DNA from: Muribaculaceae bacterium Isolate-036 (Harlan)
Lineage (GTDB): Bacteria; Bacteroidota; Bacteroidia; Bacteroidales; Muribaculaceae
Assembly (NCBI GenBank): GCA_003833075.1
Contig: RIAY01000011.1
Location: 1-64,000 of the forward strand
DNA length: 64,000 bases
Direction: 5' to 3'
In this document: positions 11,710-48,706 of the stretch, piece after piece
Layout of the letters: each line of letters opens with the position of its first letter
Position numbering within the stretch: position 1 is the first letter of the stretch
Program-made: the position numbers and the translations under genes
Notes under the pieces: model-generated
The model's input: only the letters and a program-made list of their open reading frames with translations
Told to the model about the DNA's origin: nothing
The model's database searches: none

Positions 11710-11841
11710 TATGAAGTCTTCCTCTTGCGATATAACAGGTATCAGACTACCGGAAGAATAATTCTTCTTTTCTATTTTACACTTAGGTGTAATTGTAGAG
11801 AAGCATTCGTTTGAAGTGATATATTTCCAGTTATGATTCAT
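11710..11841 (-). pseudogene. Remnant of a type I restriction specificity (HsdS) N-terminus
   Basis: An ATG at 11841, overlapping the stop of the RAYT gene, starts 44 residues resembling the first target-recognition segment of HsdS. CFSTITPKCKIEKKNY is followed by IPVISQEEDFI, like the common pattern in which a basic KxxxxNY stretch leads into P(I/V)I(S/D)Q(E/G)(E/Q)xFI. After that the reading continues into sequence with no match and then the aspA terminator, so the rest of the gene is gone. It lies on the same strand as an HsdM-like remnant on the other side of the RAYT gene, in the usual M-then-S order. The identification rests on pattern recognition alone. Confidence 0.5.
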
Positions 11842-12451
11842 AATCGTTGCAGTTTGTAGGGACGCGCCATGGCGCGTCCGCGTTGTCAATGTGGTTTGGA
11901 TTAAACCGGTCGTAACACCAATTTTCAACATTCGCATCGATATAATGCATAATATTCGCGTATGCATGCTGACTGCGAATAATATGCTCATGAAATCTCT
12001 CTTGCCAGCCGAATTCTATGTTTTGCTTTCTCGCAGCTCTGGTAACTGTGCTCTTTATTTGTCCTACTATTACTGCCAATCTGCTGTTGTGGTGAAAATT
12101 TTTGGCTTCTGATGGTTCATGTCGCTTTGGCTTCAGACATCCGTAATTGTTTTGTGACTGGGATGTTGACAAAATGGGGGACGATGCGGACGCGCCATGG
12201 CGCGTCCCTACGGAGATTACCAAATGGATGTGGTTGGGCATCACGACGCTATTCCAGACTTCAGCCTCTGGAAAATGATCTGTCACTTCGTCTATTGTTG
12301 ACTTCATGATATGTCCTATATCTGTAGGAATCATTTTCCCACCTCGTATCTCTCCGAAATAATGTATCTTTTGGTCGCAACGGACCGTAATGAAGAATAT
12401 TCCTTCATTATAGTCATGCCAATCGGCACGGAACTGGTGTCGGTCAGCCAT
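11831..12451 (-). CDS. REP-associated tyrosine transposase (RAYT, Y1/HUH family)
   Basis: This is a single-strand DNA transposase-like protein. The start at 12451 gives about 206 residues; an in-frame ATG at 12511 would add 20. Visible parts are a family-like N-terminus (DYNEGIFFITVRC), the HUH metal motif in VMPNHIHLVIS (about residues 70-80) and the helix carrying the likely catalytic Tyr in YANIMHYIDANVENW (about 164-178). Two copies of a perfect palindrome lie inside the coding region (11860-11879 and 12188-12207) and are translated in two different frames as TRHGAS and DAPWRV without breaking the gene. It is flanked by hsdS-like and hsdM-like remnants. RAYTs are thought to mobilise REP hairpins; activity here is unknown. 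Confidence 0.85.
   Translation of the reverse strand: MADRHQFRADWHDYNEGIFFITVRCDQKIHYFGEIRGGKMIPTDIGHIMKSTIDEVTDHFPEAEVWNSVVMPNHIHLVISVGTRHGASASSPILSTSQSQNNYGCLKPKRHEPSEAKNFHHNSRLAVIVGQIKSTVTRAARKQNIEFGWQERFHEHIIRSQHAYANIMHYIDANVENWCYDRFNPNHIDNADAPWRVPTNCNDYES
11860..11879 (+). repeat. REP-like palindrome, copy 1
   Basis: GGACGCGCCATGGCGCGTCC is a perfect 20-bp palindrome preceded by GTAG and followed by GCG. It lies inside the last codons of the RAYT gene. The flanks show that it is inverted with respect to copy 2, as in a REP pair. Confidence 0.8.
12188..12207 (-). repeat. REP-like palindrome, copy 2
   Basis: This is the same 20-bp palindrome as copy 1, with mirrored flanks: GC before and CTAC after. 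It falls in the RAYT coding region just after the HUH motif, in what should be a surface loop. The two copies lie 309 bp apart (end to start). Confidence 0.8.
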
Positions 12452-12539
12452 GTGCGAGCATCTTTTGGAGTTCGACCATGCCACGGAGGAAGGTTTCCCA
12501 TATCTGGTCAATATGCGATTTTATCTGTCCTGTAATCAT
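12444..12539 (-). pseudogene. Remnant of a type I restriction methylase (HsdM) N-terminus
   Basis: An ATG at 12539 opens 31 residues beginning MITGQIKSHIDQIWETF. This closely resembles the start of HsdM proteins of the MxTGxIKSxIDxIWxxFWxGG type. The match ends at about residue 20, where the frame runs into the 5' end of the RAYT gene and stops at 12444. The frame overlaps the first codons of the longer RAYT reading, which is another reason to prefer the later RAYT start. With the HsdS-like piece at 11710-11841 it suggests a type I restriction locus reduced to its edges. Confidence 0.5.
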
Positions 12540-12549
12540 TCTGCAAAAA

Positions 12550-12732
12550 TAAGTAAGTGTTGGAAATTAGCTTATATTAAATTTTAGGAGATTTTGAGAT
12601 GATTTCATGATTCCGAAGAAGGAGCATAGCGGGCTATGCGACTGATGAGAAATCATGAAAGCATCCAAAAGATTCAAAATTTAAATAAGCACGGCATTTA
12701 CTTATTATAAACTAATTTTCAATACTTACTTA
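12550..12732. repeat. Long imperfect hairpin H0 with CATAGCGGGCTATG apex
   Basis: About 183 bp fold on themselves. The outer arms TAAGTAAGT (12550-12558) and ACTTACTTA (12724-12732) pair, and the match continues inward (TTGGAAATTAG with CTAATTTTCAA; TTTCATGATT with AATCATGAAA). The apex at 12621-12645 begins GGAGCATAGCGGGCTATG and ends CGACTGA. The right arm carries some extra unpaired bases. It fills most of the 384-bp gap (12540-12923) between the RAYT/hsdM remnant and the efflux operon. Confidence 0.7.
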
Positions 12733-12923: not shown

Positions 12924-14171
12924 ATGGACAGAGAGATTTCACTCAAAGAACAAAAGAAACTAAGACGCAGGAAAATTCTGAAGACATGCGTTCCGATTGC
13001 CGTTGTTTCAGCCGGCGCCATATTCGCTTTATCCTCAATTGCCCCGTCGATGGACCGCAGCGGACTCGATTTCATCACCGCAGACACAGGCACTGTGGAG
13101 ATGTCGGCTGACGCCTCGGGCAAAGTCGTTCCGGCTTATGAAATGACTATCACATCGCCGGTGTCCACAAAAATCCTTGAGATATATTGTCACGAGGGTG
13201 ATGCAGTGGAGCGGGGACAGTCTCTGATGAAACTTGACCTTGCCGGAGAAGAGACTGAGCTGCAGAATCTCGCCAATCAGAAAATGATGAGGAACTACGA
13301 CACCCGCCAGACAATACTTGCAAGCCGCACTTTTCTCACCAATCTTGAGATGAAGATAAAAGCGAAGGAGATGTCGGTGGAACGGCTTAAAACCGAGACC
13401 GACAACGAACGGAGACTCGACAGCATAGGTAGCGGTACGGGCGACCGCGTCAGAGAGGCGGAACTTGCCTACAAAACAGCCGTTCTCGAACTCGACCAGC
13501 TTCGCAAACAGCTCCACAACGAAGAGCTGAGTCATGCCGCGGCACGCAAAAGCAAGGAACTCGAAGAGGGCATAACGGCAAAGAACCTTGAGGAAAAACA
13601 GCGAATGCTTGATGACGCACGCATCAAGGCTCCGGCAAACGCCACCGTGACGTATCTCAATTCGGCTTTGGGAACAAGCATCTCGGCAGGCGAGAGACTC
13701 GCCGTGCTTTCTGACCTCAACCATTTCAAGATCGCTGCGCAGATTCCGGAATCAAATGCCGACAAGATGGCTCTGGGTTCGGAAGTGAACGTAAAGGTGG
13801 GCAAGGAGACTTTCAGAGGAAGAATAGGAACAATCACTCCGCAGTCTAACAACGGCGTGATATCTTTCACCGTCCTGCTCGACGATGACAGCGACAAGCG
13901 TCTCCGTTCAGGAGTCAGGGCAGAGATAAACGTGCTTTACGACATAAAGGAGGAGGTATTGAGGATTCCGAACGGAACATATTATCACGGTCCGGGACAA
14001 TACATATTTTTCATAGACAACGGCGAGGGGCATCTGCTTAGACGCGAAGTCCGGCTCGGCGAGGGCAACTTCGACTATGTAGAGGTGCTTTCCGGACTCA
14101 GCGACGGCGACAGAATCGTGAAGAATGACCTCGCGGAATACAACAGCCGCAAGAAAATAAGACTCAGATAA
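12924..14171 (+). CDS. Periplasmic adaptor (HlyD/MacA-type membrane fusion protein)
   Basis: The 415-residue adaptor links an inner-membrane ABC exporter to an outer-membrane TolC channel. It has a basic N-terminus and one membrane anchor (about residues 20-42), then a barrel-sandwich/lipoyl half (SGKVVPAYEMTITSPV, then IYCHEGDAVERGQSLMKLD). A long charged alpha-helical hairpin follows at about 105-230, then the second lipoyl half (DARIKAPANATVTYLN) and a beta-barrel domain ending in NDLAEYNSRKKIRLR. It is the first gene of the plus-strand efflux set. A 421-bp gap holding two hairpin elements separates it from the ATPase gene. Confidence 0.9.
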   Translation: MDREISLKEQKKLRRRKILKTCVPIAVVSAGAIFALSSIAPSMDRSGLDFITADTGTVEMSADASGKVVPAYEMTITSPVSTKILEIYCHEGDAVERGQSLMKLDLAGEETELQNLANQKMMRNYDTRQTILASRTFLTNLEMKIKAKEMSVERLKTETDNERRLDSIGSGTGDRVREAELAYKTAVLELDQLRKQLHNEELSHAAARKSKELEEGITAKNLEEKQRMLDDARIKAPANATVTYLNSALGTSISAGERLAVLSDLNHFKIAAQIPESNADKMALGSEVNVKVGKETFRGRIGTITPQSNNGVISFTVLLDDDSDKRLRSGVRAEINVLYDIKEEVLRIPNGTYYHGPGQYIFFIDNGEGHLLRREVRLGEGNFDYVEVLSGLSDGDRIVKNDLAEYNSRKKIRLR

Positions 14172-14241
14172 TCAGGCAACGCAGAAGTCGATTCGACATT
14201 CGTACGAAACACAGTCGCGATTCATGTGAAAACAATTAGAA

Positions 14242-14386
14242 GCTGTTTAAAAATAAAAGTTAATTTGGGGTCGCAGGCTTGGTGCAGATTTCTTCTTGAG
14301 GAGAAGGAGCATAGCGGGCTATGTGACTGAGCCGAAAGGAGAAAGATGCCCAAGCTTGCGAGACTTAAAGTAACTTGAAAAACAGC
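14242..14386. repeat. Long imperfect hairpin H1 with CATAGCGGGCTATG apex
   Basis: The left arm starts GCTGTTT (14242-14248) and the right arm ends AACAGC (14381-14386). Inner pairs include CGCAGGCTTGG with CCAAGCTTGCG and AGATTTC with GAAAGAT. The apex at 14306-14333 begins GGAGCATAGCGGGCTATG and continues TGACTGAGCC. The outer left arm, 14238-14270, is an almost exact inverted copy of 14533-14566 in H2, so H1 and H2 together form a 330-bp unit with about 33-bp terminal inverted repeats. It lies between the adaptor and ATPase genes. Confidence 0.8.
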
Positions 14387-14410
14387 ACTGATTAAATTTT
14401 TAACATATGA

Positions 14411-14566
14411 AGCCTGTCGATAAATAAAAATTACCTTTGTCCGGCTCTCTCCGGTTAAAATTCATTCTCGGCTCAGTCACATAGCCCGCTATGCTCCTTT
14501 GCCTTAAATGAATTTTAACTCGAAGATAGCCGCCCCAAATTTAACTTTTATTTTTAAACAGCTTCT
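14411..14566. repeat. Long imperfect hairpin H2, inverted partner of H1
   Basis: GTTAAAATTCATT and AATGAATTTTAAC form a perfect 13-bp inner stem. Outer pairing continues through CGGCT/AGCCG and AAATAAAA/TTTTATTT to CTGT/ACAG. The apex 14470-14497 is an exact 28-nt reverse complement of the H1 apex, while the inner arms of H1 and H2 are unrelated. The arms thus vary while the apex is conserved. Confidence 0.8.
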
Positions 14567-14592
14567 TAAACAACAACTAAAAAACAAACCAT

Positions 14593-15267
14593 ATGTCAAT
14601 CATTAATCTTGAAGGTGTGGAAAAGGTTTATCGCACCAGTGAAATAGAGACAATAGCTCTTGAGAATGTTAACCTCAGGATTGAAAAAGGGGAGTTTGTA
14701 AGCATCATGGGACCCTCGGGATGCGGAAAATCAACCCTCCTCAACATCATCGGACTTCTTGACAAGGCAACCAAGGGGAAGGTGGAGATAATCGGCACCG
14801 ATACCGAATCGCTCGGTGACACCGGACTTTCCCATTTCCGCAACGCCAACATAGGATTCGTGTTCCAGAGCTTTCATCTGATTCCCTCGCTGAACGTCGC
14901 CGACAATGTGGCTCTCCCCCTGCTCTATCGCAAGGACACAGGAGCCAAGGCACGGAAGGAGAAGATCGACAATGTGCTCGAACGCCTCGGCATCTCTCAC
15001 CGAAAACGCCATTTCCCCTCCCAGCTCTCCGGAGGGCAGTGCCAGCGTGTGGCGATAGCCCGCGCAATCGTGGGAGACCCTGAAATTATCCTCGCCGACG
15101 AGCCTACCGGCAATCTTGACTCCAGAATGGGTGCGGAAGTGATGGAACTCCTGCATCAGCTCAACAAGGAAGACGGCCGCACAATCGTGATGGTAACACA
15201 CAATGAGGAACAGGCGCGCATGACCGACCGCATTATCCATTTCCTCGACGGGCGCAGAATCGAATGA
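14593..15267 (+). CDS. ABC transporter ATP-binding protein (MacB/LolD type)
   Basis: The 224-residue cytoplasmic ATPase drives the two permeases that follow. It has Walker [10 protein letters not shown] (about residues 40-48), a Q-loop in [11 protein letters not shown], the signature [14 protein letters not shown] (about 144-157), Walker B IILADEP and the His switch MVTHNEEQA. Length and sequence fit the LolD/MacB subgroup, which moves lipoproteins, peptides or drugs out of the periplasm. The first permease starts 55 bp downstream. Confidence 0.95.
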
Positions 15268-48612: not shown

Positions 48613-48706
48613 AGGTCTTTAATGGTTGTTTTTTCGGTTTTAATCGGTCACACAGTCCGCTATGCTGCCTCCCCCGACTCGTAAAAAACACCACTAAAAA
48701 TCACCT
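48613..48706. repeat. Degenerate CATAGC-apex hairpin, copy H5
   Basis: The left arm AGGTCTTTAATGGTTG and the right arm CACCACTAAAAATCACCT pair imperfectly, as do the inner runs TTTTTT and AAAAAA. The apex CACACAGTCCGCTATGCTGCC is a changed form of the reverse complement of the H1 apex. It lies in the 5' leader of the next gene. Confidence 0.5.

What the first reader, a model, noticed from the sequence alone, without database searches (positions are those of the whole stretch)
14238..14566. Two hairpins form a 330-bp unit with near-perfect terminal inverted repeats inside an efflux operon
14238-14270 and 14533-14566 are inverted copies differing by one inserted base, and the two inner apices are exact reverse complements over 28 nt. 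The unit separates the adaptor gene from the ATPase gene of a five-gene efflux set, so it could be a non-autonomous mobile element, or a switch that lowers expression of the downstream genes relative to the adaptor.
Basis: seen in the sequence. Interest (0 to 1): 0.62.

Follow-up and report, generated by a model that had tools for sequence, protein, structure and literature searches.

The report
Hairpin-ended transposon remnant in efflux operon
A 327-base stretch between two genes of an efflux operon in a gut bacterium is a recently inserted, gene-less jumping element, and its two hairpins belong to a conserved folded module found at both ends of a group of bacterial transposons that seems not to have been described.

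Summary
The unit is 14239-14565 (327 bp), flanked by a TTA duplication. It is a mobile element: a 97%-identical relative (G053) has the empty site with a single TTA, and carries the letter-for-letter identical unit at another locus, where the window's genome has none. Three other orthologous operons checked lack it. A second two-hairpin copy (83%) and about 50 apex copies lie elsewhere in the genome.

The two hairpins match the left and right subterminal hairpins of IS5-family (DUF4096) insertion sequences from the same bacterial family; the unit looks like such an element without its transposase gene.

The unexpected part is the hairpin. Its apex stays conserved while stems and terminal repeats diverge; the apical stem covaries strongly (57 double-changed cells against 13.8 in shuffles). 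In 53 of 53 hairpins the inward-reading strand folds more stably than its complement, so the single-stranded form (RNA or ssDNA) is probably what matters. Rfam has no match.

What the hairpin does is not shown: I favour a cis-acting RNA-level role, with transposase recognition as the main rival.

The parts
14239..14565 (+). 327-bp non-autonomous element (two-hairpin unit), no ORF of 80 aa or more inside
   Evidence: empty site in G053 and identical copy elsewhere in G053; second copy in the own genome at 83%; ORF list
14236..14238 (.). left copy of the TTA target-site duplication
   Evidence: single TTA at the empty site of G053
14566..14568 (.). right copy of the TTA target-site duplication
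14239..14270 (+). left terminal inverted repeat GAAGCTGTTTAAAAATAAAAGTTAATTTGGGG
14533..14565 (-). right terminal inverted repeat (one extra A)
14239..14386 (+). hairpin 1 (type 1, the kind found upstream of the transposase in complete elements); folds -66.7 kcal/mol on the inward (+) strand, -41.6 on the other
14299..14334 (+). conserved apical motif of hairpin 1 (GGAG-stem-loop-stem-TGACTGA)
   Evidence: model R1, 52.6 bits
14387..14429 (.). spacer between the hairpins, where complete elements carry the transposase gene
   Evidence: comparison with L167/L170, L171, L173, L174, L177
14430..14565 (-). hairpin 2 (type 2, the kind found downstream of the transposase); folds -54.0 kcal/mol on the inward (-) strand, -36.7 on the other
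14469..14504 (-). conserved apical motif of hairpin 2
   Evidence: model R1, 48.3 bits
12550..12732 (+). related one-hairpin element (family A) 1.5 kb upstream, same apical motif at 12614-12649
12924..14171 (+). efflux adaptor gene (HlyD family), upstream neighbour
14593..15267 (+). ABC transporter ATPase gene, downstream neighbour

Best explanation
The unit is a miniature transposable element: the two ends of an IS5-family (DUF4096, TNA-target) insertion sequence without the transposase gene, moved in trans by a related transposase and inserted recently at a TTA between the adaptor and ATPase genes (shown: insertion, target duplication, empty site, identical copy elsewhere, match of architecture to complete elements; inferred: the donor transposase, which was not found in this genome). 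Its two hairpins are not a by-product of the terminal repeats: they are a module that complete elements of this group carry at both ends, pointing inward, with a conserved apex that works as a folded single strand (supported by covariation and by strand asymmetry). Most likely (inferred) it acts in RNA: any transcript that enters the element from a neighbouring gene, from either side, begins with this hairpin, which would shield the element and its transposase gene from outside transcription or set how the transcript is cut. In this operon the consequence would be a strong structure in the mRNA between adaptor and ATPase, with processing or polarity there.
For: Mobility: empty site with one TTA in G053; the identical 327-bp unit in G053:C143 between TTA repeats, with the orthologous site of the own genome empty; second copy D' 83%, also flanked by TAA/TTA duplicates. 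Origin: complete or decayed DUF4096 elements of 1.1-1.28 kb with inward hairpins at both ends, type 1 always upstream and type 2 always downstream of the transposase, in five genera; TSDs TTA, TAA and TGA. Hairpin function: covariation 97.0% paired cells, 57 double-changed cells against 13.8 +/- 3.0 in shuffles and 2-7 when slid; inward strand more stable in 53 of 53 hairpins; G.T exceeds A.C mismatches 93 to 37 and G.A exceeds C.T 165 to 22 in the arms; between the two unit copies the apices are 48/48 identical and the rest 224/283, p 3.5e-5.
Against: No complete element with this exact terminal repeat was found in the own genome or in G053. The closest terminal repeat with an intact-looking transposase nearby (L146, GAGCTTGTTTAAAAAC...) belongs to an element without detected hairpins. 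No orientation bias to neighbouring genes was seen for single-hairpin copies, which gives no support to an RNA-level role. Retention of the hairpin in elements without a transposase gene is as well explained by a role in transposition itself.
Confidence: 0.85

Rival explanations
1. Same mobile element, but the hairpins are recognised by the transposase (or a host factor) as folded DNA during transposition; the apex is a cis-acting transposition site.
For: Gene-less elements keep the apex although nothing but mobility is selected in them: one-hairpin families A, B, C and two-hairpin families in other species share only the apex; sites at both ends point inward as transposase sites do.
Against: Terminal repeats change freely while the apex does not, the reverse of what transposase-specific sites do; one-hairpin families spread to about 25 copies with a hairpin at one end only; excess of G.T over A.C fits RNA better, though single-stranded DNA of one strand would show it too.
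Confidence: 0.35
2. A conserved regulatory leader or attenuator of the efflux operon.
For: Position between adaptor and ATPase; stable hairpins.
Against: Absent from the orthologous operons of G053, G060, G026 and G035; present at unrelated loci; precise TTA duplication; no Rfam match.
Confidence: 0.02
3. REP/REPIN-type repeats moved by the nearby RAYT-like Y1 transposase gene (11831-12511).
For: A RAYT-like ORF lies 1.7 kb away and the genome has short dispersed palindromes.
Against: The unit has terminal inverted repeats and a 3-bp target duplication, typical of DDE and not of Y1 transposition; complete elements with the same hairpins encode a DDE transposase; the RAYT-like gene is flanked by a different palindrome, GACGCGCCATGGCGCGTC.
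Confidence: 0.03
4. The hairpins are ordinary fold-back of the terminal repeats, and the conserved apex is only recent common ancestry.
For: Copies within families A and B are nearly identical, hence young.
Against: Across families and genera stems and ends have diverged beyond alignment while the apex and its pairing persist with compensatory changes; unit copies 17% apart have identical apices.
Confidence: 0.05

Closest known systems
IS5-family elements of the TNA-target kind (IS1031-like; DUF4096 + DDE transposase)
   Same: transposase profile, terminal repeats starting GAG/GAA, 3-bp TNA target duplication
   Different: the complete relatives carry about 100-nt covarying hairpins inside both ends; DUF4096 elements with less than about 45% identical transposases lack them
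Porphyromonas gingivalis MITEs (MITEPgRS/MITE464, BrickBuilt), PMC4596501
   Same: gene-less IS5-type elements of Bacteroidales; a genome of another family (G663) has a 175-bp element with the terminal repeat GAGACTGTTGCA, which that paper lists for ISPg4 and MITEPgRS, and with the same apical motif
   Different: that paper describes long stem loops in BrickBuilt from 23-nt tandem repeats, and I found no description there of this apical motif or of its conservation
Correia elements (CREE) of Neisseria
   Same: IS-derived miniature element with inverted repeats and a conserved core; one lies in the mtrCDE efflux transcript and is cut by RNase III (PMC10969869, PMC2649163)
   Different: different terminal repeats and host; no paired inward hairpins with a covarying apex (from memory, not tested)
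IS10/IS50 fold-back protection against outside transcription
   Same: proposed effect: transcripts entering from outside fold so that transposase is not made (from memory)
   Different: there the fold hides the ribosome site of the transposase; here hairpins sit at both ends and persist without the gene
IS110 bridge RNA (PMC11208160)
   Same: a structured RNA encoded in the end region of an insertion sequence
   Different: other transposase class; the loops here are 2-4 nt and too short for target guiding

Membership tests
[quoted passage not shown]
   327 bp, no ORF of 80 aa or more
[quoted passage not shown]
   36 nt, 92%
[quoted passage not shown]
   TTA, G053
[quoted passage not shown]
   17 ends of this family, one further full-length copy; copies at other places in G053
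[quoted passage not shown]
   no partner in the own genome or G053; related ends on DUF4096 elements of the genus
IS5 family (derivative of) | DDE transposase of the DUF4096 type in complete elements of the same architecture | tested here: met
   L170, L171, L173, L174, L175, L177
IS5 family (derivative of) | TNA target duplication (IS1031-like group, from memory) | tested here: met
   TTA for the unit; TTA, TAA, TGA for complete elements
REP/REPIN with RAYT | Y1 transposase and GTAG-type palindrome without target duplication | tested here: not met
   TTA duplication and terminal repeats present
Correia element | Neisseria-type terminal repeats | not tested
   no Correia sequence was compared
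Rfam RNA family | match to a curated covariance model | tested here: not met
   no match for the window or ten element loci at gathering scores

The most novel reading that the evidence does not exclude
A group of IS5-family transposons in Bacteroidales carries a structured RNA (or single-stranded DNA) module at each end, with an invariant GGAG/GAC internal loop and a covarying apical stem, that is a working part of transposition or of its control and is kept by gene-less derivatives; an RNA-assisted DDE transposition system would be a new kind.
Probability: 0.2. Interest if true: 0.88.

Novelty: new variant of a known kind. Interest (0 to 1): 0.58.

Why it matters
Miniature elements are common and this insertion by itself is ordinary. 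What is not ordinary is that the hairpins turn out to be a conserved, covarying, strand-asymmetric module at both ends of a whole group of IS5-family transposons, better conserved than the terminal repeats that the transposase reads. DDE transposons of this family are not known, as far as I could find, to need folded nucleic acid. If the module acts in transposition it would extend RNA- or structure-guided mobility to a large common family; if it acts on transcripts it is a portable processing or insulation element placed between genes about fifty times in one genome. The identical unit at different places in two close relatives gives a ready natural experiment on an efflux operon.

Tried and rejected
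Rfam search of the window and of ten element loci: nothing. RAYT/REP origin: rejected, see rivals. Donor transposase in the own genome: PF01609 hits have no matching ends, DUF4096 hits are remnants. Terminator or promoter in the unit: none by E. coli-type consensus, which is weak evidence for Bacteroidales. Orientation bias of one-hairpin copies relative to neighbouring genes as a sign of transcript-level function: none seen (B family: 6 with both neighbours co-oriented, 5 with both opposed). Start-codon or Shine-Dalgarno reading of AAGGAG...ATG in the apex: rejected because the ATG is not kept in variant apices. Hammerhead reading of CTGATGA: rejected, not conserved and no Rfam match. Literature: searches for subterminal hairpins in IS5, for Muribaculaceae insertion sequences and for MITEs with RNA structure in Bacteroides gave nothing on this module; only open-access papers were searched.

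Full report
Observation. The two inverted-repeat pairs are present as described. The exact unit is 14239-14565, 327 bp, between TTA at 14236-14238 and TTA at 14566-14568. Terminal repeats: GAAGCTGTTTAAAAATAAAAGTTAATTTGGGG and the same with one more A on the right. The + strand folds at -144.1 kcal/mol, z -14.6. The surrounding genes are an HlyD-type adaptor, an ABC ATPase, two FtsX permeases and an outer-membrane efflux protein.

It is a mobile element. A search of 61 genomes of the genus with the junction found G053, about 97% identical, whose contig C179 runs from the adaptor to the ATPase with a 3-base overlap of the two matches. The DNA reads GTGAAAACAATTAAACAAC where the window reads GTGAAAACAATTA-[327 bp]-TTAAACAAC. 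G053 carries a copy of the unit identical in all 327 bases at C143, also between TTA repeats; the orthologous place in the window's genome has no unit. Orthologous operons in G060, G026 and G035 have adaptor and ATPase about 5-45 bases apart without the unit. So the unit moved recently, and each genome holds it at a place where the other does not. The G053 assembly is an incomplete draft, but the empty site is inside a contig.

Copies. In the own genome there is one more two-hairpin copy at C55 (83%) and 17 ends of this family. The apex GGAGCATAGCGGGCTATG occurs 33 times exactly and about 50 times with up to 3 mismatches, against 3 for the reversed control. Most of these belong to other elements with different stems and ends: family B (GAAACTGTTTAAATTTAA, about 20 copies, TTA or TAA duplicated at every complete copy looked at), family C (GAGTATGTTTGGATTTAAC), and family A (TAAGTAAGTGTTGG, about 12 copies, no matching duplication seen). 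One family-A copy lies in the window at 12550-12732. Exact apices occur in 19 of 198 genomes of the family, in 7 of 30 genera, very unevenly. Ends of the window's own family were found in only 2 of 111 genomes of the genus.

Where it comes from. A search for DUF4096 (PF13340) transposases in the genus brought in elements that carry the same kind of hairpin at both ends, pointing inward. The best complete examples are L170 (G259, 263-aa ORF, 1283 bp), L171 (G319, 1261 bp), L173 (G222, 1126 bp), L174 (G072, 1112 bp) and L177 (G313, 1149 bp). In L145, L150, L159 and L167/L170 the type-1 hairpin (GGGGTCG...GAGAC...GTAACTT) lies upstream of the transposase and the type-2 hairpin (GGGGCGG...GCCGGAC...GTAATTT) downstream. 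The unit has type 1 on the left and type 2 on the right with a 43-base spacer in place of the gene. The terminal repeats of complete elements, for example GAGCCTGTCCCATAATAAATGTTAACGCTGAGG (L173), resemble the unit's in layout. Target duplications are TTA (L171, L174), TAA (L173, L177) and TGA (L170). Hairpins go with a subset of transposases: those at least 47% identical to the query have them where the ends are intact, those below about 45% mostly do not. On a tree the label needs 4 changes against 10.4 in shuffles, but a single origin is not supported. In 80 relatives from named genomes the motif was seen almost only in Muribaculaceae and similar Bacteroidales draft genomes, not in Chryseobacterium, Mucilaginibacter or most Bacteroides elements.

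The hairpin module. Hits to GGAG-N14-YGACYGA, chosen without regard to pairing, give 44 distinct sequences. The apical stem appears as CATAGC/GCTATG, CGATGC/GCATCG, TGAAGC/GCTTCA, CATACC/GGTATG, CTTAGC/GCTAAG, TGTAGC/GCTACA and others; with N16, CAATGC/GCATTG and more. Pair counts: 97.0% of cells paired, 57 double-changed cells against 13.8 +/- 3.0 in shuffles and 2-7 when slid; covariation score 0.503 against 0.196. The selection of hits fixed GGAG, GAC and GA, so those columns are invariant by construction, but the base before GGAG was free and the base after GAC was limited only to C or T: they pair as A-T in 24 and G-C in 14 of 44. GGA opposite GAC allows two neighbouring G.A pairs, an inference from sequence.

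Strand asymmetry. If the fold mattered only as symmetric cruciform DNA, mismatches in the arms should be alike on both strands. They are not: on the inward strand G.T exceeds A.C 93 to 37 and G.A exceeds C.T 165 to 22 (the counts hold under other clustering and gap settings, where G.T to A.C is 73-77 to 27-36). In 53 of 53 hairpins the inward strand folds better than its complement, by 14.3 kcal/mol on average with RNA parameters; 52 of 53 with DNA parameters. For the unit: hairpin 1 -66.7 against -41.6, hairpin 2 -54.0 against -36.7. Related elements are not fully independent, so the p-values are upper-end estimates of strength; the direction is uniform. Between the unit and its 83% copy, the two 24-base apices are identical (48/48) while the rest is 224/283, so the apex is held even in gene-less elements.

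Wider occurrence. A model of the motif (R1) finds it in scattered genomes of other families of the order. One, G663, has a 175-bp element with ends GAGACTGTTGCA and a TACAT duplication; PMC4596501 gives this end sequence for ISPg4 and MITEPgRS of Porphyromonas gingivalis. I did not compare ISPg4 itself.

How it works. Shown: insertion, duplication, recent movement, architecture, covariation, strand asymmetry. Inferred: movement by a DUF4096-type transposase in trans; function as a folded single strand; and, least certain, an RNA-level role. A hairpin at each end that folds only when read inward is what a transcript entering from outside would contain, which fits a guard against outside transcription or a processing site. 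That gene-less, and even one-hairpin, elements keep it fits either a benefit to the element in transposition or a lower cost to the host. The lack of orientation bias does not help the RNA reading. For this operon the expected, untested, effect is cleavage or polarity between adaptor and ATPase; RNase III cutting of a Correia element in the gonococcal mtrCDE efflux transcript is a precedent (PMC10969869).

Verdict. The finding itself is a well-documented new insertion of a gene-less element (ordinary). The hairpin module it belongs to is the part worth following.

Noticed in passing
window 11831-12511 (-), with 11861-11878 and 12189-12206: RAYT-like Y1 transposase ORF whose reading frame contains two exact copies of GACGCGCCATGGCGCGTC, a different palindrome, at least one preceded by GTAGG as in classical REP sequences.
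   Followed up: partly
window 12550-12732: Family-A one-hairpin element: about 12 near-identical copies in the genome, always TAAG..CTTA at the ends with no matching target duplication, unlike families B, C and D.
   Followed up: partly
window 48640-48675 (-): Degenerate family-B-like hairpin, 26.3 bits with the motif model.
   Followed up: no
L057 (G000:C11) and L075 (G000:C1): Chimeric elements joined at or near the apex (D left arm with B right arm; D half nested in A), as if elements recombine at the conserved core.
   Followed up: partly
L279/L280 (G000:C2 about 29877): The unoccupied counterpart of the G053:C143 insertion reads CATAAT-AAGCTG-TTAAAACG; AAGCTG equals bases of the element's end and could be an excision footprint or plain divergence.
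   Followed up: no
L043, L046 (family A) and L044 (family C): Some copies end exactly at a start codon, with the element's last A forming the ATG of the next gene.
   Followed up: no
L315/L316 (G663:C1 about 546600): A 175-bp element in another Bacteroidales family has the ISPg4/MITEPgRS terminal repeat GAGACTGTTGCA and the same apical motif.
   Followed up: partly
L307, L308, L309, L313: Elements with ends like GTTCTATAAATTCACCGTTTTAAA in another family of the order carry the motif in one or two copies per genome.
   Followed up: no
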